Assembly: GCA_015179045.1 (NCBI GenBank)
Contig: WHUZ01000016.1
Coordinates: 186,001 to 250,000, forward strand
From: Kalaharituber pfeilii
Lineage: Eukaryota; Ascomycota; Pezizomycetes; Pezizales; Pezizaceae
Direction of reading: 5' to 3'
DNA: 64,000 bases
Shown here: piece after piece, positions 1 to 61,020 of the stretch
How the letters are laid out: every line of letters starts with the position of its first letter
Position numbering within the stretch: position 1 is the stretch's first letter
Notes under the pieces: generated by a model
Databases searched by the model: none
What the model saw: the letters and a program-made list of their open reading frames with translations, nothing else
Told to the model about the DNA's origin: nothing
Position numbers and translations under genes: made by a program

Positions 1-297
1 GAACTTGAGCGATTCTTACCTGACCCCTCTCTTCCCACTCTTTCTTTAAGAGTTGCAGCCCGTCAGCAAGGTCAAGTCAATACCATGGCAATTGAATCAG
101 TCCCCTTAGGTTCATGTAGGTGTACTGGAAAGTGCGATTCAATGCGCTGTGGATGTGTAAAGGATAATAGGATATGCTCACTTCGTTGTCACAAAGGATC
201 AGACCATACTAGATGTGTTAATAATGCTTTAGCAAGAGGTTCAGAAGGGGCCTTTAATGTAGCTGTTTTTTCCTGTCGCCGGAGGGGTCCTTTATGA
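1..297 (+). CDS. C-terminal end of a CXC-type cysteine-cluster protein (partial)
   Basis: The frame is open from the first base of the window, so the gene starts upstream; the ATG at 85 is probably internal. Residues after position 110 form a dense cysteine cluster (CRC..KC....CGC......C...CHKG followed by a C near RCVN). This CXC/CHKG arrangement is known from the C-terminal tails of some integrase-like (Ginger/KRBA2-type) transposon proteins, where it probably binds zinc. The catalytic part is outside the window, so that assignment is inference. The last ~14 codons and the stop lie inside the minisatellite at 255-645, so the original C-terminus has probably been replaced by repeat sequence. 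Confidence 0.5.
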   Translation, partial: ELERFLPDPSLPTLSLRVAARQQGQVNTMAIESVPLGSCRCTGKCDSMRCGCVKDNRICSLRCHKGSDHTRCVNNALARGSEGAFNVAVFSCRRRGPL

Positions 298-4075: not shown

Positions 4076-4590
4076 CTACCCCAGATCATGGCTGGCAAAC
4101 CAATGCTCGACCGGATCGCCCTCCACATCCTCCTGCTTCCACCCTTTCTCCTCTAAGTCCTCCCAGGATTGCCAGGTGACTTGTACCCCATCCTTATCCT
4201 TCCTCTGAGGTCTCTCTAGCTTGGTGCACCTGAATACCACATGCTCAGCACTCCACTCCTCTCCACACGTGCATTGCACCTCCTCACCACCGATCACCCT
4301 CCTCCAGATCGCTCCGCCTTTTTCGGTCCGCAGCCAGGTGTAATTTGTCAATGCTCTCCTGCCCCACCGCACAAATTTGCCCTTCCCAAACCCAGCTCGT
4401 TCCCTCTCCTCCTTTCTCTTTCTCGCCATAGCCCGTTGGGCGGCACGCGAGTATTGATATAAAAAAAAAAAAAAATCCTTTCTCTTTCGACTAACTTCTG
4501 TCTCAGACCGCCCTCAGTGGACTGGCCATCATACCTCATGCAGGTGGCCCCTCTTTGGCCATCTCATCTGCCTTAAAGGCGACATTTGTA
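4076..4590 (-). pseudogene. LINE-B ORF2 C-terminus (RNase H end plus zinc finger), broken
   Basis: The minus strand encodes the end of a LINE polyprotein. A KADEMAKEG block (the last RNase H motif) is followed by a basic linker and WGRRALTNYTWLR. A CTCGEEWSAEHVVFRC finger follows, typical of the C-terminal cysteine finger of RNase H-bearing LINEs. Frame is lost around the 54-bp insert at 4422-4475. The same protein is better preserved at 50995-51632. The RT part is absent through 5' truncation. Confidence 0.75.
4422..4475 (+). mobile_element. Hairpin-only LINE-A tail insert, 54 bp
   Basis: The insert starts exactly at the CTCGCCATAGCCC hairpin base and ends TGATAT plus 15 A. The 12-bp TSD TCCTTTCTCTTT is perfect (4410-4421 and 4476-4487). 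The duplicate segment at ~31760 has the uninterrupted target, so this is a genuine retro-insertion containing nothing but the tail. Confidence 0.95.
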
Positions 4591-11585: not shown

Positions 11586-12128
11586 CGGGTTTCTACTATA
11601 GGAACCAATGAGGCTCCGAGCAGGGTGGAGAGAGAATTGAGAGCTGACAATCCAGGAGTATTGGCCAATAGATCAGTACGCAGATTAACTAACAAACAGG
11701 TCCCAACACAAGGAAACAAGGCACTATCCATTTTTGTGACTGATGGAGTAGTCGAGACCCTAAAATCAGGCTTACTCTTCAGAGGTGATAGAATAAAGCT
11801 ATACCTAAGACAGGATCTAGGAAAGGAGACCTCGAATAAAGCCAGAAGATATAGGTACACTGCTCCAGATGGATACTGCCGACATTTCGTAGTGGGGCAG
11901 GTAATCGAGTGGCTCCCCAGACAACGCAACCTTCCAGAACATCTGAAGAGCTCACCAGCAAGGCGAGACTACGAAGACCCAGTCGACCTCAATGAAACTC
12001 CATTTGCAAAGTCATGCCAGGCTTGTCGAAAGAAAGGCGGACACGAGGAAGGGTGTGAACGAGCGAGAGCAGCACAGGAGAAAGCGACCCCATATAGGGC
12101 ACCAGGGTATCGACAAATAAGACTATGA
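11586..12128 (+). pseudogene. LINE-A ORF1, C-terminal part with cysteine finger
   Basis: The frame is open from 11586 and gives TNEAPSRVERELRAD, then a compact domain (DGVVETLKSGLLFRGDRIK, RRYRYTAPDGYCRHFVVGQ). It ends in a CxxCxxxxxHxxxC cysteine finger (CQACRKKGGHEEGC), a variant of the retroelement zinc knuckle. The stop TGA (12126-12128) overlaps the ORF2 start ATG (12125-12127) as ATGA. A matching segment (FRGEIIKVQLK to GQVIEWIPRQR) occurs at 48594-48760. Confidence 0.8.
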
Positions 12129-14209
12129 TTAAGGTCGCATACCAGAACGTTGGCAGGTCAATACTGGGGACGGACCTAGCCCTACAGGAAGCAGCAGACA
12201 AGAAAATAGATATACTTTTTATAGGGGAATGCTGGAGAGCACCAAGGGGAGGAACTACATTTCATCCAAGCTATACGAACGTACATTCTCCTATAAAAAG
12301 CGGAGCAATAACAGCCTACGTAAGGAAGGACAGAATAATGAGCATGAAAATAGACGGCAAAGCCAACCACATCACAGTACAATTAGACGACCGAATGATT
12401 ACTGGAGTGTACTGGAACAGAGACACCGATATTGAGAAGGAATTGGAAGAGATAGGAGTAACGGATATGATAATAGGGGACTGCAACAGCCATCACTATG
12501 ACTGGCCTCCGAAACAAGATACTAGAGGCATACTACTAAAAGACACCCTCCAAGCACGAGGACTACTCCAACAGATAGATAGAAATACTATCACATGGAC
12601 ACGGACAATCAATGGACAGATAAGAACGGCACTCTTGGACCTGGTATTCGCAAGACCCAGGGAATGGAAAACAACAAAGACAACATGGATTTCTGGTACA
12701 GACCATGTGATGATTATCGGAACATTGGATACCAGAAAGAAGACAGAGGCCAAAACCATTAAAGTAACAGACTGGGACAAATGGGAAGAATTTGTTGATA
12801 AATATGGCAACAGAAAACTAGCCGAAGGTATTGATGGGTATGAACTACTATGTGAATTAAGCCAAAAGTTTACAAAAGATGCATACATCACCAGACGCAC
12901 GAAACGATGGTTCGACAAGGAGGTAAAAGAGGCACGACAAATGACCAGAACCATTCTAAAGAGCGGGGCTAGCCACACAGAGAAAACAAGAGCGAGAAGA
13001 CTACTTAGGGAGATAATAAGAGATAAGAAGAAGGAATACTGGGAAGGCTTCTTAGAAGAGGACAGAATCACCTCACCATGGGATATTTTCAGGCTAGCAA
13101 GAGACCCTTTCCGCCAAAGAGACCTCATGGGGATACCAGGCTCAGACGAGGAGATAGCTAAGGTATTGATTGAGCGCAACTTCATATCACAAGGACAAGA
13201 AACTACGACCACTACTATCAGACCAACAGGACTCACCGTCGAAAAAGATCAAGCCAGGATGATGATAGAAAAGGCACTAACAAAAGCTAAACCAAGATCA
13301 GCACCGGGACCCGATGGCATACAATATGGCTTACTGAAGCTTCTGAAGGGTACGACTCTATGGACTGCTGTAAGAGAGAGAATTGTAGAATATATAAACG
13401 GTGACTACGATTTTGCCAGAGGCTTTGAGGTGGTTATGATACTCAAGAAAGGGAAACCCAGAGATCAGGTAGGGAGTTGGAGACCCATAACGCTTCTGAA
13501 CACAGTAGCGAAGCTAGGTCAAAAAGTCATCGCAGACCTGCTACAAAGAAAAGACGACCTTTTCAGAGACACTCAGCTTGGAGGAAGACGCCATCGAGGT
13601 GCAGAGGATCTACAGCGACAAGTGCTGAAGGAGACAGAGAAGAGGCTACAGAAGAAAGAATGGGTAGCCCTAGTGGGAGACGATATTAAGTCAGCTTTTA
13701 ACTTTCTTCGAAGGGACAAGGTGGTTGCTCGAATAAGACAAACAGACCATAACCTAGCAAGCTTCGTAGAAGCTTTTATGATGCCGACCAACTACAACAT
13801 GACATGGGATGGCAAAAGGAGAGCTACAGGGAGGATGACAGATGGTACACCACAAGGATCTCCACTATCCCCGGTACTATTCCTGATAGGTGTAGCACCT
13901 GTGGCAAAGAAGGTAGACCAACACAACTTCACCAGGTCATATGTCGATGATTTCCACAGTGTAATCTCACATCCGTCACTCCTAAAACTCCGACAAGCCA
14001 TAAAGATACACAGGGCAAAAATCACCGAAACAGCAGCAGAGCATGGATTCGAAATTGACCCAAACAAGTCCGAGACACTAATAATTGGGGTAAAAGGCCC
14101 TGACTATAGGCTAACCGGATTGACGGTAGATTGGGAGCTAAAATTTACTCGACATCATAAGAAGAGACTACTTCTCGGGAAGGCAGCATGGGGAGTGGCA
14201 TCGAGACTA

Positions 14210-14503
14210 TTTTTTTTTTTTTTTTTTAATATCAGTACTCGCATACCGCCCTAAGGGCTACGGCGAGGGTTTTATTATAACAGAAATAAAAACAAGTCAA
14301 CGTCTAGTTACATGTAGTGCCCGCGAAACTCCTTCATGGTGCGGGTGGCATGCCCGGTATGTCCTACTTCCGTCCCCTCTCCGATTCATACCGGTCCGAC
14401 CTTAACCAACGTCCCCCGAGCCTCACCCTCCCAACCTCGGTCTCCTTCTCCAAGTAAACTACCGCCGAGCGGGTTGCGCGGGGTGGTGCTCCCGTGGCTG
14501 TGG
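14210..14503 (-). mobile_element. Element C (ORF1-only, LINE-A-tailed), truncated copy
   Basis: Poly(T) and a reverse LINE-A tail begin at 14210. The minus strand then encodes the element C C-terminus (SAVVYLEKETEVGRVRLGG..., ending in a stop). TSD GGCATCGAGACTA at 14197-14209 and 14504-14516, perfect 13 bp. It interrupts the LINE-A ORF2. Confidence 0.9.
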
Positions 14504-14889: not shown

Positions 14890-15262
14890 TGTGATGACGG
14901 CTCAACAGCATCCACTGTTTCGCACGGGTACCGGTATCTAGAGCTGGCGGAACGAAGCCTCAAGGGCGGCCTCAATAATCAAATGTCAAGAAAAGAGTCT
15001 TCAATTGTCTTGTCTGTGCGTGTCCATATCTGTCCATGTCTGTATATCTCCGTGTATATCTGTCCGTTGCTCCTTGCTTCCACAGTCCTATCTACATACA
15101 ATTTATAGACCACCTTCGCCTTCCAACTGAGCCTATACATACATATCTCGCTTCTTAATCATAGTTTTCTTCCCATGTGTCATCATGTGGCCCTACCGCT
15201 GAGTACCGCTTCAGCCCGCGTATGGCCTTATTCTTTCCATCGGTACCGTGGTTACCACCACA
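14890..15262. mobile_element. Solo LTR, 373 bp (TG...CA)
   Basis: An insertion in LINE-A ORF2 starts TGTGATGACGG and ends ACCACCACA. It is flanked by CCAG (14886-14889 and 15263-15266), possibly ACCAG. Removing it and one flank rejoins the ORF2 frame between LPLAILP and LPANADKLEFE. Size, TG/CA ends and short TSD fit a solo LTR of a fungal LTR retrotransposon; no internal coding is present. Confidence 0.75.
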
Positions 15263-16204
15263 CCAGCACTACCTGCGAACGCAGACAAGCTCGAGTTCGA
15301 GAATGCCATAGCCAATGCCGAGGACGAGGGGTGGAACTCCGTCTACACTGACGGGAGCAGGATAGATTACAAGACAGGCCTAGGCACCTACGCAAAAGAC
15401 ACCTCTACTTCCACATACCTAGGGGAACAGACTACTGTCAATGATGCAGAACTCATTGCCATGAGCGAAGCATTACGCAATCAAGCTGGGGAACTCCTGA
15501 TCATAACCGACTCTAAGGTATCGATATCCAAGCTCCTAAAGATCGCCCAGGGAGAGCCCACCCACAAAGGACCAGCAAAACTGGTTAGAGACGCCTGGAA
15601 AGCGAGAACAGACCGAGGTGACTGGGACGTTGCAGTGATGTGGGTCAAGTCCCATATAGGAGTCAAAGGGAACACCGAGGCAGACACAGCTGCGAAAATA
15701 GGCACATGCCTCCCCTACCAAGATGAAACCATAACAGAAGATGGGATACGACAAACCTCGAGACATCACCGCGCCACAGAGAGAAACCGGCTAGGGCTCA
15801 GCTACCGTCCCTTGACAAGACTTGGAAGTCGACACATAGCCACACTAGCAGGAATACTGGGCGGCTAGTTACTACGGAAATGGCAGTACGAAATCGGGAA
15901 AGCAGACAGCCCAGAATGTCGATGGTGTGGGGAGGAGGAGGAGACTACTGAACATGTGCTCACTAGGTGCAGGACATGGAAACGAAAGTGGCCAGGAGGC
16001 ATGCAAGACTTGGTCACTCCTCCGAAGAGCAAGGACACAGGCCCACTAAGAGACATCTTGGAGTGGGCAGGGGCATAGGAGACACACAGGATCTTTTCTT
16101 ATTCCTTTTCTTCTACCTTCATATGTATCTAATCTCATGTAACTAATCTCGCCATAGCCCCCAGGGCGGCACGCGAGTAATGATATAAAAAAAATAAATA
16201 AAAA

Positions 16205-16240
16205 AAAGCTGCACGCGGGGTCACGTGATAAAAAACAAAC
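16205..16240 (+). other. Second half of the split LINE-B tail
   Basis: TSD AAAGCTGCACG, then CGGGGTCACGTGATAAAAAAC, completing the LINE-B type tail begun at 8453. This proves that the 7.7-kb LINE-A landed inside an older LINE-B-tailed element. Confidence 0.85.
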
Positions 16241-17673: not shown

Positions 17674-17730
17674 TTTTTTCTTTTTTTTTTTATATCACTA
17701 CTCGCTTGCCGCCCTGTGAGTTATGGCGAG
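17674..17730 (-). mobile_element. Hairpin-only LINE-A tail insert, ~57 bp
   Basis: T-run and reverse tail ending exactly at ...TATGGCGAG. Flanked by TGTTGAGGA (17665-17673) and TGTTGAGG (17731-17738). It stands beside two longer LINE-A copies that use the same target motif. Confidence 0.8.
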
Positions 17731-26595: not shown

Positions 26596-27327
26596 GTGGT
26601 TATCAGTTATGCGTTACGTTACGTTACGTTAGGTAACCCATGTCAATCAACTAAGCCTAAGTGAGAGGGGAGTAGCTGATTTCCCCCATGTAACTCACGT
26701 TACCGTTCCATATCGTCACATCCGTAACATCACCATGCCCCGCACCTCGTTTCAACTTTCCAGCATCCAAATAACTAGTCTCTCAATTTCGTCGTTTGTC
26801 CATGCAAGGTTACTAGTTTGCTTGCTCATGGGAGTAGCAGAGCACGGAGTAGCAGAGCGTGAAGTAGCAGCGTGTGAACTTGCTGCTGTTGTAGCGGACA
26901 TTTGCTGACTCATGGTGATAGAAGCTAGCGAGCTCTCAGTAGATTTTTTTTTTTTTTTTTTTTTTTATTCACGTAACCCCGCATACAGGCTACCAGCCTA
27001 TGGCAGGGGACTCTCAGTAGATTAATATGCTCATGAAATGGTAGATTAAAGACGTGTCATGCATATGCATCTGTTGTTCAAATCTTGCTGATTTAGGTAA
27101 AAAACTAGTCAGAAACCCCTGAGCTTAGCCGAAAACAGGTTGCATATCCTTGTCGTTACCCAGAGTTACGTGAAGTTATGGCGGTTACGCGACGATTTGG
27201 CAACGTGATCACCGTTACGTCGCGTAACGAAAATCGGTGGTTTCAGGTAACGAAACCAGCCAATCAGAGCATTTGCTTATGTCATGTCACCTAACGTAAC
27301 GTAACGTAACGCATAACTGATAACCAC
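26596..27327. mobile_element. MITE with perfect 39-bp TIR containing GTTAC repeats, TA TSD
   Basis: 26596-26634 and 27289-27327 are exact reverse complements, starting GTGGTTATCAG and running into (GTTAC)n. TA lies on both sides (26594-26595, 27328-27329). Additional GTTACG motifs sit subterminally. No coding capacity. A 66-bp hairpin-only LINE-B insert plus its TSD copy occupies the middle; before it the element was ~654 bp. Confidence 0.9.
26945..27010 (-). mobile_element. Hairpin-only LINE-B tail insert, 66 bp
   Basis: T-run and reverse LINE-B tail (CACGTAACCCCGCATACAGG, ending at CCTATGGCAGGGGA). Perfect 12-bp TSD CTCTCAGTAGAT at 26933-26944 and 27011-27022. Contains no sequence upstream of the structured tail. 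Confidence 0.95.
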
Positions 27328-27329
27328 TA

Positions 27330-29270
27330 TTATCTCTCAGTTTTTCTTCACGACTGCATGTTTGGTAATTCAAAGAAAAGGTTAGTGTAATGTAACTCAA
27401 AGGCGCCAGGTAAGAAAAAGAAGTGCGTTGTCGTTTTCATGCGATTCGTGTAACCATAATAATCGACAGTCATGCACCAGCAGGCGAAACTGGGTGCCTT
27501 CCCCTAAGGATTTACGTGAAATTCAAACCCTGGTCCGTATCCCTGTTTTATTGTTTGGTAGAGCGTTCGCAACAATTTTTTGAAAGAGGGTACCCCCCCA
27601 CCTCTTTCAAAATACTCACTTTTCAACAATAAACAATGAATTACAAAACGTTAGTTAGAGTACACTACTGCTGAAGTAGCATAGTTTATAATAACTATAC
27701 CATATAGAGGATATTTAAATTCACATTTGCATCATTTGTACGTATCCTGCTTGCATATGTACTATCTAGTAATGCCTCCAGCAAAGAATTTTTACTCCAA
27801 GAGTTTAGTCTTCGTTACTCTTTCGCTTTTTAGATACATTGATACCTGACTGCTACCTAGTACTTGCCGGCAGAACTTTACTACTGTTTCTTAAGACCTA
27901 GTAGTCCCTCTTGGTGCTTGAGAACTCATGTTGTCTTTCGTGGTGAGATTGACAGCTTGTTGGCTGACTCATAATTTCTGCATTTAAGGTGTAAATCCTG
28001 CAGCATAACAAAAAGTTTTCTAGATTCATTATTTACTCACGTCCAAGTGCTTAGCGAAACTACCTCCTGCTTGTAGTGGAAATGTACCCTAGTAAAATTT
28101 GGTTTGAAATTCATATAAAACCTTAGGGAGATAACAGAGGAAAGACTGGAACTACTGAGTAATTCCCAGTAGTTGAACCCGCTATTCCGGTAGATCAGTA
28201 AAACAAGGTAATTTTTTGAGACCTATCAAGTTTGCCGTTATTGATCACTTGTGTTGCCATTCTCGGCTTGTATTCGCGGTTATCTTCTGCGCCCCGCTCG
28301 GAAGCACGGAGCTTGAAAAATGATTTGCCATCCGGCAGGTTTGTAGTTCGGATTCTGCATTTTCTTGCATGAAGCTTGAAAGGCAGCTGCTGTTAAACCA
28401 TATATTACGAGCTAATGCGGTGGGATACAATTTACTGATTCTTGCAGAATATTATTGAACAAGCATCCAAAACGGCCCTACCTATTTATACATGAAGAAC
28501 TACTTTCATACCCAACTAGACAATTTGATGCGGTATGTAGCGCATAGTAGCGGATTCAGACGGTAAAGCATGAAATCATAGAAACGTCAGTCTATATCGT
28601 GGCCGATGGCAACTCGGGTGTACATAGCCTAATTCCAACAGCAGTCGATTCTCCTATCCGAACTATGCACCTGCTCGTAAGCATCCTTGCGTATGTGTGT
28701 GGCACCTTAGCTAGACCCTAGTTACTAGATTGACCTTCATTGCTACGGACTGGCGGAACGGAAGATTCTTTGGTTGCGACGAACGTGCCTACGTAAGCGC
28801 GGAGATATGGTGCCGGTACAGGGGAGTAAAGCCAGCAGACTTTTCCGTGGATGTGATACCATGCCGTCGCTAAAGTGGGGGCGCCATGTACATCGTAAAA
28901 TTCCGCGAATAAGAGCCTCCCACTATCTTATTACGACACCTGTGCAAGAAGCACGCGTGAGGGTCATGCTACTAAGGTATCTTCCACGAGGTATGATCTC
29001 TAAGTGTGTGCTTTAGCACCCTTACGGCTAATAACTTCCAGGCACATACACGTAATCCATATGTCAATTCAAGTTACTGCTACATATTCAGCGCATACTA
29101 GCTTTGTCCAAACGGGAGTTTCAGCATCTTTCATCCAGTTATTACACGAGCCAGCATCACCTGAACTCTGCGAAAACGTGTTTTTCTAGATCGGATTAGC
29201 TGATTGATCTCCTGATAGGCTGATACGATGAATGAACTGGATGTCTACGAACGACACGGTAGTAGGAGGC
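27330..29270. other. Intergenic, nothing recognised
   Basis: No frame above 80 codons has a protein-like pattern. No repeat ends, tRNA or LINE tail seen. It could hold decayed elements beyond recognition by eye. Confidence 0.4.
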
Positions 29271-29278
29271 GCGCCTAA

Positions 29279-29337
29279 TTTTTTTTTTTTTTTTTTTTAA
29301 TATCATTACTCACCTGCCGCCTGGTAGGCTATGGTGA
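29279..29337 (-). mobile_element. Hairpin-only LINE-A tail insert, 59 bp, with compensatory changes
   Basis: Perfect 8-bp TSD GCGCCTAA (29271-29278, 29338-29345). The insert is poly(T) plus a reverse tail. In sense orientation the stem reads CTCAC..GCCT/AGGC..GTGAG instead of CTCGC..GCCC/GGGC..GCGAG, so two base pairs have changed together. Confidence 0.95.
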
Positions 29338-29714
29338 GCGCCTAAGTCACTATAACCGGGCTGATGCGGGCGCGAACCCCGTAGGTCACGTAGGTTATAT
29401 GTTGTAGCTCGATAACACACACACGATCAGATTAAGTCCGAGGGCATGGGAGATGTCAGAGATGACAAGTCTAGCAGCAACTGGCATACGAAGAGTGTCC
29501 GTTGTACATAGTCTTCGTCTTTTATCTTTCCTGTCATCATTCATTCATCGTCCCATTCGTGTTTATTTTCGTTACCTACAACCTTTCTACAGTTATACCC
29601 TCTTAATATTTGTGCCTGTACTTCATATACGATCGAACAACACCTGCTTACACTCATTGATCTCTTCTACTCACTACGTGATACTGCCTTGACTTCCTCT
29701 TTTGCCCAACGACC

Positions 29715-31328: not shown

Positions 31329-31790
31329 CATGGCAGGGACCCATATACCCGGGTCAGGTTACAGACCGCTAACTACATACTCTACGTACACACCCCGACC
31401 CCCCCAGTACCATCGCAGCTGCCCCAGATCAAGGCTGGCAAACCAATGCTCGACCAGATCGCCCTCCACATCGTCCTGCTTTCACCCTTTCTCCTGTAGA
31501 TCCTCCCAGGATTGCCAGGTGACTTGTACCTCATCCTTATCCTTCCTCTGAGGTCTCTCTAGCTCGGTGCACCTGAACACCACATGCTCAGCACTCCACT
31601 CATCTCCACACATGCACTGCACCCCCTCACCACCGATCACCCTCCTCCACATCGCTCCGCCTTTTTCGGTCCGCAGCCAGGTGTAATTTGTGAATGCTCT
31701 CCTGCCCCACCGCACAAATTTGCCCTTCCCAAGCCCAGCTCGTTCCCTCTCCTCCTTTCTCTTTCGAACTAACTCCTGTCTCTGAATGCT
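31329..31790 (-). pseudogene. LINE-B C-terminal fragment (duplicate of 3988-4490)
   Basis: Same content as 4076-4429: WGRRAFTNYTWLR, the CMCGDEWSAEHVVFRC finger and DKDEVQVTWQSWEDL. The structured 3' tail is missing at the left edge, where gypsy sequence abuts. No hairpin insert is present at ~31760, giving the empty site for the insert at 4422. An upstream ~160 bp is deleted. Confidence 0.8.
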
Positions 31791-35144: not shown

Positions 35145-35762
35145 CACGGCCATGCGCCTGGAAAGAGGGAGGTGCAGGGCATGGTTGAAGAGGATAGAAG
35201 TGGCAGAATCGGAGAAGTGCAGCTGTGGGGAGGTCCAGACGGGGAGCACCTAGCCTTCCAGTGCAGTCAGCGAAGTTTCACCCAGAAGGCTTTGGAGAAT
35301 GGGGGGATATGGAGAAGAACTGGAAAAGGACGGTGGAGAACGGGGAGGAGTGGTAGTCTCATACCAAGCCCCTAGGGAGGAGTGGGATGAGTTGGAAAGG
35401 TTCTTTTCCGGGATCAGGTTTTAGAAGCGCGCGATTTCCCGACCCGTGTCGGGGAATGAGGAGGGGGGATGACGTCATGTAATGAGAAATTTTCGTTCCG
35501 GGCTGCGAAGGTGTGGAGGGTGGAGGAAGGAGAGGAGAGAAGAAGGAGAGGAGAAGGAGGAGGCCATGGAGTAGCCTTCCCGATGTAGAAACCGGAAGGA
35601 CGTCCGGAAGGTTCTAGAATCAGGTTTCTAGAAGGGGAAAGGGGGTGGTGGAACGGGGATGTGTATGTAGAACTTTCTTTGTTAAGGCTTACCCAGGGAC
35701 CCTGCCATGCCTCAGCGCTGCAAGCGGGGTTACGTAAGGTAAAAAAAAAAAAAAAAAAAAAT
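35145..35762 (+). mobile_element. LINE-B-type 3' fragment inserted in LINE-A 5' region
   Basis: Perfect 15-bp TSD TAGCAGGTAGTGTGT at 35130-35144 and 35763-35777. Ends with a LINE-B-like tail (CCCTGCCATGCCTCAGC, GCAAGCGGGGTTACG) and poly(A). The start encodes a finger remnant (SEKCSCGEVQTG) of a LINE C-terminus related to but distinct from the copy at 51050. The remaining ~450 bp is a G-rich 3' UTR. Confidence 0.9.
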
Positions 35763-36715: not shown

Positions 36716-36810
36716 TCCGTCGTGGTGTAGTGGCTAGCATTTGAGACTCTCATCATTCCCAACACAACAATGTGACCTCTCAGAACCCGGGTTCAATTCC
36801 CGGCGACGGA
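36716..36810 (+). tRNA. tRNA-Glu (CTC) with 24-nt intron
   Basis: The acceptor stem TCCGTCG/CGACGGA pairs over 7 bp. The anticodon stem TGAGA/TCTCA encloses anticodon CTC at 36749-36751 (U33 and A37 present). The intron at 36753-36776 follows position 37, the standard site. The T arm CCGGG-TTCAATT-CCCGG is perfect. A T-rich run ~30 bp downstream could act as a pol III terminator. Confidence 0.93.
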
Positions 36811-37195
36811 AATTCTTTTACTTCCAAGTGCACCTTGCTTTCTTTTTTTTTTTATTACCCAAACAAAGGGGGGTAGGAACGACAAGAGCAATGCCCGAAG
36901 GAAACATGAAATAGCTATGTCAAAGAACCCACTAGACCACAGCCAAATAAAATGTAGATTTCTACGTTCCCACGTCCGAATATGTCACAAACAATACTGC
37001 GCTAATTCGATATTCCAAAAAAAAGTGAAACCACACATGCCTAATAAATAACAGGGGATATAAGTATGCAGGGTTTCCCATGTAAATCCTCCTTTCAAGC
37101 CGCGAGAAAAAAAAAAAAGGAAAAAAAAAACATATGCCCAAAGTATGGAGTGAGTGCTTGAAAGTAAACTTGGTGGTATGTATCGATGCAAAATT
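36811..37195. other. Spacer between tRNA and tandem array
   Basis: T-rich then A-rich sequence with no gene. Phrases related to the downstream array appear from ~37080. Confidence 0.4.
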
Positions 37196-37259
37196 CACCC
37201 CGTTCCCCATCAAGCTCAAACGCGTAAATGCCCCTAAATTTCAACTCCCGAAAATCAAG

Positions 37260-37293
<34 letters not shown>

Positions 37294-38130
37294 TATAACA
37301 AAAAACGTGAATAACAAATATATCGAACCCCAGATCCCCTCACCGACATTTCCGTCCCCGCTCAATTCTCTTTCCCAAACACATAAATGCCCCTAAATTT
37401 CACTTCCGAAAATCAAGAAAAAAATAAAAAGAAAAAAAAAAAACAGTATAACAAAAAACGTGAATAACAAATATATTGAACCCAGATCCCCTCACCGACA
37501 TTTCCGTCCCCGCTCAATTCTCTTTCCCAAACGCGTAAATGCCCCTAATTTTCACTTCCGAAAATCAAGAAAAATAAATAAAAAATAAATAAAAAAAAGT
37601 ATAACAAAAAACGTGAATAACAAATATATTGAACCCAAGATCCCCTCACCGACATTTCCGTCCCCGCTCAATTCTCTTTCCCAAACGCGTAAATGCCACT
37701 AAATTTCACTTCCGAAAATCAAGAAAAATAAAAACAAAAAAAAAAGTATAACAAAAAGGTGATAACGGATATATTGAACCCAGATCCCCTCACCGACATG
37801 TCCGTCCCCGCTCAACTCTCTTTCCCAAACGCGTAAATGCCCTAAATTTTCACTTCCGAAAATCAAGAAAAAAAATTAAAAAAAAAAAAAAAAAAAGTAT
37901 AACAAAAAACGTGAATAACAAATATATCGAACCCAAGATCCCCTCACTGACATTTCCGTCCCCGCTCAATTCTCTTTCCCAAACGCGTAAATGCCACTAA
38001 ATTAACAAAAACGTGATACACATATATTGAACTCAGATCCCTCAGTGACATTTCCACCCCCGCTCAATTCTCCCAAACGCGTAAATGCCCTAAATTTTCA
38101 CCCGACATTTCCACCCCCCGCTCAATTCTC
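37196..38130. repeat. Tandem array, ~150-bp unit, ~7 copies
   Basis: Units share TTTCCGTCCCCGCTCAATTC, CCCAAACGCGTAAATGCC, CACTTCCGAAAATCAAG, an A-rich run and GTATAACAAAAAACGTGAA. Spacing shrinks from ~160 to ~95 bp toward the right end. The array lies immediately 3' of the Smr-domain gene. Frames in it only arise from A/T runs. Confidence 0.9.
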
Positions 38131-50150: not shown

Positions 50151-50994
50151 AAGCTCAAGGGCTGAAGTGCCAACTACTCCTGCAACCTGAGCTTAACTCA
50201 ACAAGTATGACAGGTCTCCCCCGCCAGCGCTGAATTTGACAGATATGACAGGTGCGGCCCGACGGCGTGAGGTGTGCCATAGTGAGTTGAATTTAATAGA
50301 TGGCAGGCCCCACGGCCTCAGGTGAGGAAGAATGAGCTCAATTTCACAGGTATAGCAGGCTCCACCCACTGCTGCGAGATGAAGTAGAGTGAGTTGAACT
50401 TGACAGGCATAGAAGGCCAATCCAACGGCATAAGATAAGGTTAATTTAATACGTATGGCTGAGCTGAATTGATAGACATAGCAGGTACGGCCCGACGGTA
50501 TGAGATGAGGTCAATTTGACGGGCATGGCAGGATCGGCCCGACGGCGTGAGATGAGCCAGAATAAGCTCAATTTGATAGGTATGGCAGATCCGACCCGCC
50601 GGCATAAGATCAGGCAGAAGGAGCTGAATCTGACAGGTTTGGCAGGCCCTATCCGACGGCACGAGAGCAGATAGAATGAGATGGACTTGACAGGTATGGT
50701 GGGCCCAACCTGCCGGCACGAGATGATGCAGAATGAGCTGAACTTGACACGTTTGGCAGGCCCTATTCGGCGGTGTGAGATGAGCCAGAATGAGCTGAAT
50801 TTCATAGGAATTGCAGGCCCGACTAACGGCACGAGATGATACAGAATGAGCTGAATTTGATAGATGTGGCAGCCCCGACCTGTCGGCGTGGGATAGGGTG
50901 GAATGAGCTGAATTTGACAGGTATAGCGGGTACGCCCCGACGGCGTGAGATGAGGTGAAGTTCACAGGTATAGCCGGCCCACGAGATGAGACAG

Positions 50995-51632
50995 TGCAGT
51001 CCACAAAGCAGGAAAAACTGGCAAGGCAAGAACCGCAGACCTAGCGCGGGTGATAGAGCTGATTGCAGAGAGGCGGCGGAGGCTAAGGAAGGCGGATGCA
51101 GTGAAGCTGGCATGGGTCAAGGCCCACGTGGGGATAGAAGGCAATGAGAAGGCGGATGAGTTGGCCAAAGAGGGGGCCAAGTGCATGAGGTATGATGGGC
51201 AGGCCACTGAGGGTGGGCTGCGTCAAGAGTTAGTTCGAAAAAGAAAAGAGGAGAGGGAGCGTGCAGGGTTTGGGAAGGGCAAATTCGTAAAGTGGGGCAG
51301 GAGAGCACTCACAAATTACACATGGCTGCGGACTGGAAAAGGCGGAGCTATTTTTTTTTTTTTAAACATCATTACTCGCGTGCCGCCAAGGCGGAGCTAT
51401 GTGGAGGAGGATGGTCAGTGGCGAGGAGGTACAATGCACATGTGGTGAGGCATGGAGTGCTGAGCATGTGGTGTTCAGATGCACCGGACTGGAGCGGCCC
51501 CAGAGGAAGAACAAAGATGGGGCGCATGTCACCTGGCAGTCCTGGGAGGACCTAGAGGAGAAAGGCTGGAAGCAAGAAGGCGTGGAAGGCGACCCGGTCG
51601 AGTACTGGTTTACCTGCCTCGGTCTGGGGTAG
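50995..51632 (+). pseudogene. LINE-B ORF2 C-terminus (RNase H end, zinc finger)
   Basis: Reads GKARTADLARVIELIAERRR, AWVKAHVGIEGNEKADELA (final RNase H motif with His and Asp), EGGLRQELVRKRKEE and WGRRALTNYTWLR. After a 49-bp interruption it continues WRRMVSGEEVQCTCGEAW and SAEHVVFRC, then GDPVEYWFTCLGLG and stop at 51632. Only the hairpin insert at 51352-51387 breaks the frame; removing it and one TSD copy restores continuity. Best LINE-B sequence in the window. Confidence 0.85.
51352..51387 (-). mobile_element. 36-bp half-hairpin LINE-A insert
   Basis: Perfect 13-bp TSD AAGGCGGAGCTAT at 51339-51351 and 51388-51400. The insert is a T-run, AAACATCATTACTCGCG and TGCCGCC only. That is the 3' half of the hairpin, truncated at the loop. 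Smallest insertion in the window. Confidence 0.9.
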
Positions 51633-52042
51633 CCGGGGACCGGGGGACGGAGGGCACTGGGTGCTCAAGGAGTGTATGTAGATTCCGTAGTTAGTTGTCC
51701 CAAACCTGGCCCGGGTATATGGGTCCCTGCCATAGACTGGTAGCCTGTATGCGGGGTTACGTGAATAAAAAAAAAGAAAATAAAAAAAACCTGAATTTGG
51801 CACGTATGGCAGCCCCGACCCGGCGGTGTGAGATGAGGTAGAATGAGCTGCATTTGATAGGTATGGCAGCTCCGATCCGACTGCACGAGATGAGGTGCAA
51901 TGAGCTGAATTTGACAGCTAGAACAGGTATGGCCCGATGGTAAGAGATGAGGTGAATTTGACAGGTATGCCTGGCCCGAGGCGACGGTGCAAGATGAGGT
52001 GGAATGTATGGCAGCCCCGACCCGACGGCACGAGGTGAGGTA

Positions 52043-52246
52043 TTTTTTTTTTTTTTTTTATATCATTACTCGCATGCCGCCCTGTGGACTATAGATCCAG
52101 GAGTGGGTCTCCCTCCTGTTCCGGCGGGTCCAGGAAGTCTTCCTTCCCTCCTGGCCATATCCTGTCTTTCCATACTCGGCACTCCCCTAGCAGATGGCTG
52201 GTTGTCTCCTCCCATTACCCGCACCAGCGGCAGTCCGGGGTGTCAG
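52043..52246 (-). mobile_element. LINE-A 3' fragment, 204 bp
   Basis: Perfect 12-bp TSD CGAGGTGAGGTA (52031-52042, 52247-52258). Poly(T), reverse tail truncated inside its 3' UTR, then the last ~40 ORF2 codons on the minus strand (finger region, DCRWCG, TTSHLL). Target is the satellite. Confidence 0.9.
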
Positions 52247-53029
52247 CGAGGTGAGGTAGAATGAGCTGAATTTGAGACCTATGGCATGTCTGACCCGAGC
52301 CATAAGATGATGCAGAATGAGCTGAATTTGACACATGCGGCAGGCCTGATCCGATGGTATGAGATGAGGTAGAATGAGCTCAATATGACAGGCATGGCCG
52401 GCCACACGACCCGAGGTAGAATGAGCTTAATTTGGCATGTATGGCAGGCCGGCCCGACGGCATGAGCTGAATTTGACAGGTATGGCTGACAGGAATAGCA
52501 GGTACGGCCCGACGGCAGGAGATAAGGTCAATTTGACAGGCATGGCAGGGTTCGGTCCGACGGCGTGAGATGAGCCAGAATGAGCTGAATTTCACACGAA
52601 TTGCAGGCCCAACCTGACGGCATGAGGTGAGGTGAATTTGACACATATGGCTGACAGCTATAGCAGGTACAGCCCGACGGTGTGAGATGAGCCAGAATGA
52701 CCTGAATTTCACACGAATTGCAGGCCCAACCTGACGGCATGAGATAAGGGGAATTTGACACATCTGGCTGACAGCTATAGCAGGTACAGCCCGACGGTGT
52801 GAAATGAGCCAGAATGAGCTGAATTTCACACGAATTTCAGGCTCGACCCAACGGTATGAGGTGAGGTGAATCTGACACGTATGGCGGACAGCTATAGCAG
52901 GTACGGCCCAACGGCAGGAGATAAGGTCAATTTGACAGGCACAGGGTTCGACCCGACGGCGTGAGATGAGCCAGAATGAGCTGAATTTGACACGTATACT
53001 AGGGCTGAATTTGACAGGCATGGGCAGCC

Positions 53030-53490
53030 CTAGCAATTTCAGTACCCATTCCGGTAGCCATTTCAGCAGCCATTTCAGTACCCATTTCGGCAGCCATTTC
53101 AGCAGCCATTTCAGCAGCAGTTTCAGTAGCCATTGAAGTAGCCATTTCGGTAGCCATTTCACGATCGATTTCAGTAGCCGTTTTGGCAGCCATTTTAGCG
53201 GCCATTTCGGTAGCCCTTTCACCAGCCATTTCACCAGCCATTTCGGCAGCCATTTCACCAGCCATTTCACCAGCCATTTCACCAGCCATTTCGGCAGCCA
53301 TTTCACCAGCCATTTCACCAGCCATTTCACCAGCCATTTCACCAGCCATTTCACCAGCCATTTCACCAGCCATTTCACCAGCCATTTCACCAGCCATTTC
53401 ATTGTGCATATCGGCAGCCGTTTTGGCAGCCATTTCAGCATCCATTTCGGCAGCCATTTGGGCAGCCACTTCGGCAGCCACTTCGGCACG
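53030..53490. repeat. 12-bp repeat array (TTTCACCAGCCA)n within the satellite
   Basis: A pure to degenerate 12-bp repeat, most regular at 53220-53400. It has no stop in several frames and so produces artefact frames such as repeated MAGE or AISP peptides. Confidence 0.9.
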
Positions 53491-54114
53491 TGATACGTAT
53501 GGCAGTTCCGACCCGAGGGCACGAGATGAGGTGCAATGAGCTGAATTGACAGGTAGAGCAGGTACGGCCCGACGGCGAGAGATGAGGTGAATTTGACACG
53601 TGTGGCCAGCCCGATCCGACGGCACGAGATGATGCAGAATGAGCTTAATTTCACAGGTATGACAAGTCCGGCCTGGTGGCGTAAGATGAGGAAGAATGAG
53701 CTGAATTTGAGAGGTTTGGCAGGCAGGACCTGACAGTATGAAGAGGTGAATTTGACAGGCTGGGCAGGCCCTATCCGACCGCACGAGAGCAGGCAGAATA
53801 AGCTGAACTTGACAGGTTTGGCATGCCCTATTCAACGGCTTTAGATGAGCCAGAATGACCTGAATCTCACACAAATTGCAGGCCCGACCAGACGGTACGA
53901 GATGAGGTAGAATGAGCTGAATTTGAGACGTACGGCAGCCGGCCTGAGCGACGAGAAGATGCGAAATGCGCTGAATTTGACATATATAGCCGACCCGACC
54001 CGACGGCGCGAGATGAGATAGAATAAGGCGAGTGTGGTAGATATACTAGGTGCGGGTCTTGGTATTTTTTCCTAATTGGGACGAAAGGCCCTGGGCAGCT
54101 TGTAATCAACCCGT

Positions 54115-55413
54115 CTGCTCCTCAGCAAGCTGAGTTCGCTCCTGGGCACCAGCGCTGCCCGCACCATAGCCACATGGGGATGCTGGGCCTGGAAGGAATA
54201 TGCAAGAGGGGGCCCCAAGCCTGTCTCCGGGCTTCGAGGGCTCGCCCAGGGACCCTGCCATGGCTTGGCGCTGTAAGCGGGGTTATGTGATTTTAAAAAA
54301 AAAAAAAAAAAAAAAAAAGAGGGGCCCCCGAAGAGACCAAAACTAGAGATCTCGAAAAGTGGCAATACATGGTAGCCCGAGAAATTACTGGTGCACCATG
54401 GGGAATGAGGAGAGACCTGGTGGAAGCACTAGCCAACCTGGAATCAGTACACACGTCCACGGCAGTGGAATGCACGAGAGTGGAGGCGAGAGTGCTACGA
54501 TTTACTAACAAGAAGCTGAGGGAGGAGGACCAGAACCACAGGTACCTAAGAGGAACGTTGATCCATACATTCCCTCTTCCTCTAGCCCTATTACCAACCC
54601 TTCTAAGGGATGCCGACAAGGAAGAATGAGAGAGGGTCATTGCCGATTGCCGAAGAGGAAGGTTGGAATAGCTTCTATACAGACGGCAGCCGAATAGACG
54701 ACAAAACTGGCGCCGGCACATTTCACAATGGAACTAGAAACTCCACATACCTGGGCACACAAAGCACGGTCAATGACGCTAAACTAATAGCCATCGGAGA
54801 GGCACTTACACGCTAGGAGGGAGGGATCTTAATAATGACTGACTCCAAAATAGCCATTTCCAAGCTTCAAGAGATTGCCAAAGGGGAACCCACCTATGAA
54901 GGCGCATCACAGATGGTCAGGGAATGCTGGGAAATGAGGGCCAGAAGGGGTGATCTAGACGTAGCTGTGCTGTGGGTAAAAGGCTACAGAGGGGTCAAAG
55001 GGAACACAGAAGCCGATAAAGTCACCAAAATTGGTACTCGCCTCCAATACCAAGACGAAACGGTTACTGAGGCAGGTATGTGACAACTATCGAGAGTACG
55101 GAGGGCCATGGAAAGGAACAGGCTGAATCTCAACTGCAGACCACTCCAACAACTGGGACAAAGAGTTTCGACACTGGCAGGCATACTAGATGGCAAAGGC
55201 CTAAGGCGATGGAGATATGAAATAGGCAAAGCAGATGGCCCGGAATGCCGGTGGTGCGGAGAGGAGGAGGAGACCACCCCCCACGTTCTAGCACGGTGCA
55301 AGGTCTGGAAAACGAAATGGCCCGGAGGAGAGGAAGACTTGCTCAGACCCCAGAAAGGCGACAAGAAGGATCACGACATGTTGGCGGACATTCTAGAATG
55401 GACGGGACGATAG
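54115..55413 (+). mobile_element. LINE-A copy without recognisable tail
   Basis: Coding from the RT thumb through RNase H to the terminal finger, split by a LINE-B-tailed insert at 54217-54318. No hairpin tail is seen after the stop at 55413. Confidence 0.8.
54115..55413 (+). pseudogene. LINE-A ORF2 thumb and RNase H, with stops
   Basis: Thumb remnant at 54120-54216. Then QYMVAREITGAPWGMRRD, VEARVLRFTNKKLREED and RYLRGTLIHTFPLPLAL, with a stop at 54627. RNase H follows: FYTDGSRIDDKTGAG, NDAKLIAIGEAL (Glu replaced by Lys), a stop at ~54817, MTDSKIAISK, KGYRGVKGNTEADK and a stop at 55080. The C-terminal finger ECRWCGEEEETTPHV and stop follow at 55413. The Glu-to-Lys change and stops make it inactive. 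Confidence 0.85.
54217..54318 (+). mobile_element. LINE-B-tailed insert, 102 bp
   Basis: Tail CCCTGCCATGGCTTGGCG, GTAAGCGGGGTTATGTGA and a 25-nt A run. Near-perfect TSD GAGGGGGCCCC / GAGGGGCCCCC (54206-54216, 54319-54329). ~40 bp upstream of the structured tail is included. Confidence 0.8.
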
Positions 55414-57296: not shown

Positions 57297-57335
57297 GCCC
57301 TGCCATGGCGAACAGCTGCAAGCGGGGTCACGTGA

Positions 57336-57367
<32 letters not shown>
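57297..57367 (+). mobile_element. Hairpin-only LINE-B tail insert, 71 bp
   Basis: Starts GCCCTGCCATGGCGAACAGC and ends with the A-run. Perfect 13-bp TSD AGGTACACAAAGC at 57284-57296 and 57368-57380. It interrupts LINE-A coding sequence. Confidence 0.95.
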
Positions 57368-58024: not shown

Positions 58025-58082
58025 TTTTTTTTTTTTTTTTTTTATATCAATACTCGCTTGCCGCCCTATGGGCTATGACGAG
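58025..58082 (-). mobile_element. Hairpin-only LINE-A tail insert, 58 bp
   Basis: Perfect 12-bp TSD AGGTTTGCCATT at 58013-58024 and 58083-58094. Poly(T) plus the reverse tail ending one base beyond the hairpin base. The host sequence resumes unchanged. Confidence 0.95.
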
Positions 58083-59443: not shown

Positions 59444-59513
59444 ATGCCCTGCCATGGCGAACAGCTACAAGCGGGGTCACGTGAAATAAAAAAAAAAAAA
59501 AAAAAAAAAAAAA
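59444..59513 (+). mobile_element. Hairpin-only LINE-B tail insert, 70 bp
   Basis: Starts ATGCCCTGCCATGGCGAAC. Perfect 11-bp TSD ACGCACAGCTA at 59433-59443 and 59514-59524. Structured tail plus ~28 A only. Confidence 0.95.
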
Positions 59514-59861
59514 ACGCACAGCTACTGTAATGGGGATGTGCAAAGACGTACGATTTTGCTTAAGGTTGCGATGAAGCTACAGAACAACACCTGCTCGCAA
59601 TTTTTTCAATTTCAATTTGTGGTTCATCAGGGCATCCCAGGAGCTGACACGAGACTTGGTGGCCCGGTTCTTCGCACTATCGTGTTTCAAGGAACTGCTC
59701 CAAATGGCCAAGGGATTATGTACCTATCTCAAAACAAATCCGGGTTAGTACGTCAGCTATCTGTTGTATGATTATTTTGCGTTCTCCGGCGTAAGTCAGA
59801 ATCCTTTTGATAATATAATCATTTACTAATGGCTACTAGTGTATACTCTTTCTGCTTGTTT

Positions 59862-60559: not shown

Positions 60560-61020
60560 TCCTAAGATTTCGAGACTGCTCTTCAGGGCTTTTCTAGAAG
60601 CTTTTCCAAGGCTATTCCAAGAGCTGTTCCAGGGGCTGTTCCAGAGGCCATTGAAATACTGTTTGAGAGGCTGTTCGAGCTCAAACGGCCTCCGAAACGG
60701 CCTCGGAAGTAGCCTCCGGAACAATCTCTGGAACGACCTCCGGAACAGCCTCTGAACAGCCTCTGAACAGCCTCTGAACAGCCTCTGGGACACCCTCTTA
60801 AACAGCTGCTCGAACAGCTGCTCGTAGCATTTTTTTTTTTTTTTTTTATATCACATGACCCCGCGTGCGGCTGCTCGCCAAGGCAGGGCCCCTGGGTCTT
60901 CGACCCTCAAAGCCCGGAGGCAGGCTTCTGCTCGTAGCATGTCAACCGCTACCCAAACAGCTTCCGAAACAGCCTCCGCAAAAGCTTCCAGAAAGCCCCC
61001 GGAACAGGCTACAGAAGAGC
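60560..61020. repeat. 12-bp minisatellite (GAACAGCCTCTG-like) inside the TIR element
   Basis: Degenerate tandem copies of GGAACAGCCTCC/GAACAGCCTCTG run through the element centre, split by the insert at 60831-60927. The minus-strand frame here (repeated RLFRR-type peptide) is an artefact. Confidence 0.8.
60831..60927 (-). mobile_element. LINE-B-tailed insert, 97 bp
   Basis: Perfect 13-bp TSD CTGCTCGTAGCAT (60818-60830, 60928-60940). T-run, ATATCACATGACCCCGCG and the reverse tail, plus ~40 bp upstream of it. Confidence 0.9.

What the first reader, a model, noticed from the sequence alone, without database searches (positions are those of the whole stretch)
29279..29337. Hairpin-only LINE-A insertions: the element's 3' stem-loop moves alone
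Four inserts (4422-4475, 17674-17730, 29279-29337, 58025-58082) are 54-59 bp and consist of the LINE-A tail hairpin plus poly(A) only, three with perfect 8-12 bp TSDs. Their 5' ends fall at or within a base or two of the hairpin base, not at random positions. Either RT stalls reproducibly at this structure or a tiny transcript (~35 nt plus poly(A)) is mobilised as a minimal SINE. I know of no described retroelement this small, but I cannot search.
Basis: partly seen in the sequence, partly recalled or inferred. Interest (0 to 1): 0.88.

Follow-up and report, generated by a model that had tools for sequence, protein, structure and literature searches.

The report
Hairpin-only retrotransposon insertions in a truffle
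In a desert truffle genome, the small RNA hairpin at the end of a jumping gene is often inserted alone, as a piece under 70 letters long, and a sister hairpin has spread widely as what may be one of the smallest jumping elements known.

Summary
The host is Kalaharituber pfeilii. LINE-A ends in a hairpin plus poly(A); 2317 exact tails genome-wide, reversed-pattern control 0. Among the 100 tails listed, 19 inserts begin within -6..+2 of the hairpin base (17 at the stricter score) and 5 in the apical loop, 6 with one read by eye; permuted flanks give 0 in both windows. A separate contiguous 264 kb gives 8 and 2 of 40. Paralogous empty sites confirm two inserts. Bare LINE-A hairpins are as diverse as the other tails: recurrent truncation, not one tiny master.

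A second hairpin, C, resembles the tail of another LINE (LINE-T) but carries a diagnostic TC. Of 12 C copies held, 10 are bare hairpin plus A20-31 with TSDs, one of these weak. Genome-wide there are 810 exact C hairpins, none with the LINE-T 3' body tag; of 100 listed LINE-T-type hairpins 48 have it. C looks like a stand-alone ~40-nt SINE. Why inserts stop at the base, and how C RNA is made, is inferred.

The parts
4423..4475 (+). LINE-A hairpin-only insert; TSD TCCTTTCTCTTTC at 4410-4422 and 4476-4488
   Evidence: empty site in rc(51215-51310)
17674..17730 (-). LINE-A hairpin-only insert (hairpin mutated) beside another LINE-A tail; 8-bp TSD CCTCAACA
   Evidence: non-canonical predicted fold
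29279..29337 (-). LINE-A hairpin-only insert; TSD worn here, GACTTAGGCG on both sides in the duplicate L002
58023..58082 (-). LINE-A hairpin-only insert; 10-bp TSD TGGCAAACCT
51351..51387 (-). half-hairpin LINE-A insert (3' arm, tail, poly(A) only), 37 bp; TSD TAGCTCCGCCTT
   Evidence: empty in paralogs 4280-4372 and 31620-31705
26944..27010 (-). tail-B hairpin-only insert, 11-bp TSD
57297..57367 (+). hairpin-C element (bare hairpin plus A31), 14-bp TSD
59444..59514 (+). hairpin-C element (bare hairpin plus A30), 10-bp TSD
60830..60888 (-). TC-type tail that does carry a LINE-T-like body (TSD 39 nt upstream): the exception among the 12 C-type copies
12125..14254 (+). LINE-A ORF: AP-type endonuclease (PF14529) and reverse transcriptase (RVT_1); a minus-strand LINE-A fragment (tail 14210-14250) interrupts its end
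15248..15868 (+). RNase H ORF, taken to belong to the same LINE-A copy (same strand and order; not tested)
16148..16207 (+). 3' hairpin and poly(A) of that LINE-A copy
54253..54320 (+). LINE-T tail hairpin with 3' body (GGGGTTATGTGA type)
35700..35761 (+). LINE-T tail hairpin; copy truncated about 555 nt upstream (15-bp TSD)

Best explanation
SHOWN: LINE-A makes many insertions that contain only its 3' hairpin and poly(A), with the TSD lengths and tail lengths of its longer copies; their 5' ends cluster at the hairpin base, with a minor cluster at the apical loop. A related hairpin, C, occurs as bare hairpin plus poly(A) in nearly every copy examined and forms its own lineage, close to the tail of LINE-T. 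INFERRED: LINE-A and LINE-T are stringent-type LINEs whose protein holds the template by this hairpin. Target-primed reverse transcription starts in the poly(A) and copies the hairpin; once the hairpin has become RNA:DNA duplex the protein loses its grip on the template, and in about one event in five the template is released there (or already at the loop), giving an abortive hairpin-only insert. Hairpin C is the parasite form of this unit: an RNA that is little more than the recognition hairpin and poly(A), copied in trans, as a minimal SINE.
For: Pile-up at the base 19/100 and 8/40, permuted null 0. Loop cluster 5/100 (6 with L050 read by eye) and 2/40, null 0; 5' arm 0/100 and 0/40 at score >=8. 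Median TSD 11 vs 12 and poly(A) 24 vs 22 for base vs longer truncations. Empty sites. Source diversity equal in bare and other tails. Hairpin pairs kept in 86-92 of 94 tails, with C-G/A-T and C-G/T-A exchanges at two pairs. C: 10 of 12 copies bare with TSD, permuted null 0 of 110; 810 exact C hairpins, 0 with the LINE-T body tag, against 48 of 100 listed TT hairpins with it; subfamily linkage in C, Fisher P 3e-13. LINE-T 3' body encodes an RNase H end and C-terminal region 35% identical to LINE-A's. Stem-loop recognition by LINE protein is established for ZfL2-1/ZfL2-2 (PMC4176376, passages).
Against: No RNA or biochemical data: release at the hairpin is inference. Loss of grip does not by itself explain stops in the loop. 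Copies ending 3' of the stem would be missed, because the pattern needs the 3' arm. The 17674 insert has a non-canonical predicted fold. At TSD score 7 one tail (L079) falls in the 5' arm. 50 of 100 tails have no dated 5' end. The RNase H match of the LINE-T peptide is below Pfam's cut-off (21.5 vs 25.8 bits). C rests on 12 copies with flanks, one weak (L046), one undated (L010) and one body-bearing (window 60888). No pol III box was found in C and no promoter is known.
Confidence: 0.45

Rival explanations
1. Template-limited: LINE RNA is trimmed before reverse transcription. A 5'-3' exonuclease stops at the (protein-bound) hairpin, an endonuclease cuts upstream or in the loop, and the hairpin plus poly(A) fragment is copied to its end.
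For: Ends sit at the two single-stranded/double-stranded borders and in the loop, with none in the 5' arm. C shows that a bare hairpin can serve as template. All LINE-A subfamilies contribute.
Against: A loop-cut RNA no longer has the whole hairpin that a stringent LINE should need, so the cut would have to follow binding. No RNA data.
Confidence: 0.35
2. Trimming of the cDNA: host nucleases shorten the single-stranded cDNA until they meet the hairpin that it also forms, or open its loop, before second-strand joining.
For: It predicts the same two end positions. TSDs are of normal length.
Against: It does not account for hairpin C as a separate lineage. Nothing here distinguishes it at LINE-A.
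Confidence: 0.1
3. Hairpin C is just the truncated tail of a LINE whose long copies were not sampled.
For: 12 copies with flanks is a small sample; window 60888 is a TC-type tail with a LINE-T-like body; four TC tails with a body exist genome-wide. LINE-A and LINE-T also leave bare hairpins (L026 may be one for LINE-T).
Against: 0 of 810 exact C hairpins carry the body tag, against 48 of 100 listed TT hairpins. Bare fraction 10/12 for C vs 19/100 for LINE-A, Fisher P 2e-5. Linked diagnostic sites form subfamilies. A LINE with an unrelated body is not excluded by the tag test.
Confidence: 0.25
4. Ordinary random 5' truncation that happens to include very short inserts.
For: Longer LINE-A copies do show scattered ends from -28 to about -530.
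Against: 19 ends in 9 nt where about 0.4 are expected from the longer dated truncations.
Confidence: 0.02

Closest known systems
Stringent-type LINEs with a 3' stem-loop tail (UnaL2, ZfL2-1/ZfL2-2)
   Same: A conserved 3' stem-loop just before the 3' repeat; in ZfL2 its deletion abolishes retrotransposition and the protein region between EN and RT binds it (PMC4176376, passages).
   Different: Here the hairpin is also the unit that is inserted alone; in the passages I saw hairpin-only genomic copies are not described. Tail is poly(A); the EN/RT/RNase H type is fungal.
SINEs that share the 3' tail of a partner LINE (eel, plant and Chlamydomonas pairs; PMC3747384, passages)
   Same: Non-autonomous, tail hairpin homologous to a LINE tail, poly(A), TSDs, high copy number, subfamilies.
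   Different: Hairpin C has no tRNA, 7SL or 5S head and no A or B box at the mismatch limits used; it is the tail alone.
5'-truncated LINE copies
   Same: TSD-flanked 3' ends of a LINE. PMC3747384 (passage) says truncation is at various positions, copies 100 to 1,000 bp long.
   Different: Here a fifth of the tails end at one structural border and the inserts are under 70 bp.
Platy-1 (about 100 bp primate SINE; PMC10378772, search listing only)
   Same: A very short SINE with thousands of copies.
   Different: Roughly 1.5 times the whole C insert and of different origin.

Membership tests
LINE (non-LTR retrotransposon), for LINE-A | endonuclease and reverse transcriptase in one element, with RNase H | tested here: met
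   PF14529, RVT_1 and RNase_H above Pfam cut-offs in window ORFs; that they form one element is read from order and strand
LINE (non-LTR retrotransposon), for LINE-A | TSD-flanked, 5'-truncated copies with poly(A) and empty sites | tested here: met
Stringent-type LINE, for LINE-A | conserved 3' stem-loop | tested here: met
   fold -12 to -14 kcal/mol for consensus forms; 86-92 of 94 tails keep each of nine pairs; the 3' arm was partly fixed by the search pattern
Stringent-type LINE, for LINE-A | protein needs the stem-loop | not testable with these tools
   needs a binding or retrotransposition assay
SINE, for hairpin C | non-autonomous, TSD-flanked, dispersed, tail shared with a LINE | tested here: met
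SINE, for hairpin C | RNA polymerase III promoter or small-RNA-derived head | tested here: not met
   no A box (<=2 mismatches) or B box (<=3) in the hairpin (box consensus recalled); no Rfam match at the window's C copies
SINE, for hairpin C | own lineage with subfamilies | tested here: met
   diagnostic TC and linked sites
Minimal-SINE lineage, for LINE-A hairpin-only copies | copies more alike than the LINE pool | tested here: not met
   5.22 vs 5.22 pairwise differences, subset test p about 0.5

The most novel reading that the evidence does not exclude
Hairpin C is a retroelement reduced to the recognition element itself: an RNA of about 40 nt plus poly(A), with no body and no recognisable promoter, spread to hundreds or more copies by a LINE that also leaves its own hairpin behind as an abortive product. 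It would be among the smallest self-spreading retroelements known, and would show that the LINE recognition hairpin alone suffices for natural mobilisation.
Probability: 0.5. Interest if true: 0.85.

Novelty: new variant of a known kind. Interest (0 to 1): 0.72.

Why it matters
If right, the lower size limit of a mobile retroelement is the recognition hairpin plus poly(A). The pile-up of 5' ends at structural borders gives a genomic readout of a step in target-primed reverse transcription (template grip and release, or template decay) that is hard to see in living cells, and K. pfeilii offers thousands of natural events to test it. Such inserts are under 70 bp and would be missed by repeat annotation with usual length limits (my inference).

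Tried and rejected
Rejected: smooth truncation; a single LINE-A mini-SINE master; assembly or annotation artefact (paralogous empty sites; several contigs). One search printed inner-stem pairs with a wrong offset; one search replaces them. Tail B gave few copies in held sequence and one clear hairpin-only case (window 26944-27010), so no rate is claimed. Rows dropped before counts: L001 (the window itself); window 29723 (degenerate duplicate of the L002 C insert); L019 2741, L066, L048 and similar, whose TSDs look plausible by eye but fail the score; L003-L008, chosen by similarity to the 29279 insert, were left out of all LINE-A rates (L002 counts in C). L050 was put in the loop group by eye (script chose -487). 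About 4.4 of 100 permuted tails reach score 8 somewhere upstream, so a few longer truncation calls are chance. The output was cut; only rows shown are used. Ten paper searches listed no hairpin-only LINE insertions or SINE this short; only titles, abstract starts and, for two papers, passages were seen, so absence from print is not established.

Full report
What is there. The window lies at G000:C68:186001-250000 of a 78.03 Mb, 360-contig genome. A 905-aa frame from contig C1 matches a Kalaharituber pfeilii protein at 96% identity on a contig of exactly C1's length (2,993,692), so the host is that desert truffle. LINE-A has AP-endonuclease, RT and RNase H domains and ends in a 5-bp plus 4-bp hairpin with a 3-nt loop, about 12 further nt and poly(A). 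Each of nine pairs is standard in 86-92 of 94 full-hairpin tails, with C-G/A-T exchange at the closing pair (67 and 13) and C-G/T-A at the innermost (77 and 7). These exchanges follow subfamilies, so they are few events, and the search pattern partly fixed the 3' arm.

Checking the observation. The four inserts are real. To test the claim without bias I counted exact 3' tails genome-wide: 2317, reversed control 0, and took the 100 that the tool listed, in contig order (C1-C3), with 620 nt upstream. TSD scoring with a match/mismatch scheme gave a base cluster (rel -6..+2) of 19 tails at score >=7 and 17 at >=8, a loop cluster (rel 12..18) of 5, and none in the 5' arm at score >=8 (one, L079, at 7). 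Eight permutations of downstream flanks gave 0 in the base and loop windows; elsewhere upstream they gave 4.4 chance calls per 100 at score 8. L050 adds a sixth loop case by eye. The disjoint contiguous sample of 264 kb has 40 tails, 8 at the base and 2 at the loop, none in the arm. Expected base count from the 25 longer dated truncations spread over 594 nt is 0.4. Half of the 100 tails have no dated 5' end, most probably longer than the fetched 620 nt or worn.

Empty sites. The 4423-4475 insert and the half-hairpin insert 51351-51387 lie in copies of one repeat; each is absent, with a single TSD copy, from paralogs in the window.

Recurrent or single source? Bare and other LINE-A tails are equally diverse (5.22 vs 5.22 differences; random subsets 5.20 +/- 0.89; p about 0.5), include C-G and A-T closing types, and have like TSD (median 11 vs 12) and poly(A) lengths (24 vs 22). 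The hairpin-only copies therefore come from the whole LINE-A pool through the usual machinery.

Hairpin C. Tails outside LINE-A led to a second hairpin, GCCCTGCCATGGCGAACAGCTRCANGCGGGGTCACGTGA-poly(A). In the held 361.8 kb there are 12 TC-type copies: 10 bare with a TSD ending 0-3 nt before the hairpin (L016, L057, window 59447, L002, L024 twice, window 57298, L015, L091, and more weakly L046), one without a clear TSD (L010) and one with a LINE-T-like body (window 60888). By script 8 of the 11 ungapped copies pass score 8 at -6..0 against 0 of 110 permuted pairs; L024-6729, with an indel, is. Genome-wide there are 2423 matches within 2 mismatches of a 34-mer (this includes TT-type LINE-T tails) and 810 exact 29-mers. 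The upstream tag TGTCTCCGGG occurs before 237 GCGGGGTTACGTGA tails and 4 GCGGGGTCACGTGA tails, and none of those 4 has the C hairpin; 48 of the 100 listed of 336 exact TT hairpins coincide with a tag hit. Absence of the tag does not exclude an unrelated body. In the 100 listed exact C copies two sites are linked (60:1 vs 13:26, Fisher P 3e-13, counted by hand), as in SINE subfamilies.

Where C comes from. The body before TT-type hairpins encodes an RNase H end and C-terminal region 35% identical to LINE-A's (Pfam RNase_H 21.5 bits, below its 25.8 cut-off), with copies truncated about 555 and 630 nt upstream. I call it LINE-T. C resembles its tail and is probably mobilised by it; that is inference.

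Mechanism. Both end clusters lie at borders that exist only while the hairpin is folded. An RT halted on meeting the stem would leave ends 3' of it, which these are not, though inserts with such ends could not be seen because the search pattern needs the 3' arm. Release of the template once the gripping hairpin has been copied, template RNA trimmed to the hairpin, or cDNA trimming all predict the base peak. The loop peak fits endonucleolytic cuts or a loop-bound protein; in ZfL2-2 the protein recognises the loop specifically (PMC4176376, passages). I favour release during reverse transcription for LINE-A and a truly short template for C, with the odds given.

Known or new. Stem-loop recognition and SINE/LINE tail sharing are known (PMC4176376 and PMC3747384, passages). 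Hairpin-only insertions as a distinct class and a tail-only SINE were not found in ten searches of an open-access library, which is no proof of absence. I file it as a new variant of a known kind.

Noticed in passing
window 50233-54040: Array of 57-bp imperfect repeats, with a 12-bp tandem array (52972-53536) inside it that keeps long open frames on the minus strand.
   Followed up: no
window 37112-38003: Five copies of a unit of about 150 bp, several ending in a poly(A) run.
   Followed up: no
window 29130-29487 and L002: Segmental duplication between contigs C68 and C319 that includes the hairpin-only LINE-A insert and a hairpin-C insert.
   Followed up: partly
G000:C1: Of the exact LINE-A tails listed on the 2.99 Mb contig C1, 19 of 21 lie in its first 0.55 Mb; the rest of the contig is nearly free of them.
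   Followed up: no
L026:7043(+): A TT-type (LINE-T-like) hairpin that looks bare, with an imperfect TSD: LINE-T may also leave hairpin-only copies.
   Followed up: partly
window 36716-36811: A tRNA gene by Rfam, between repeat copies.
   Followed up: no
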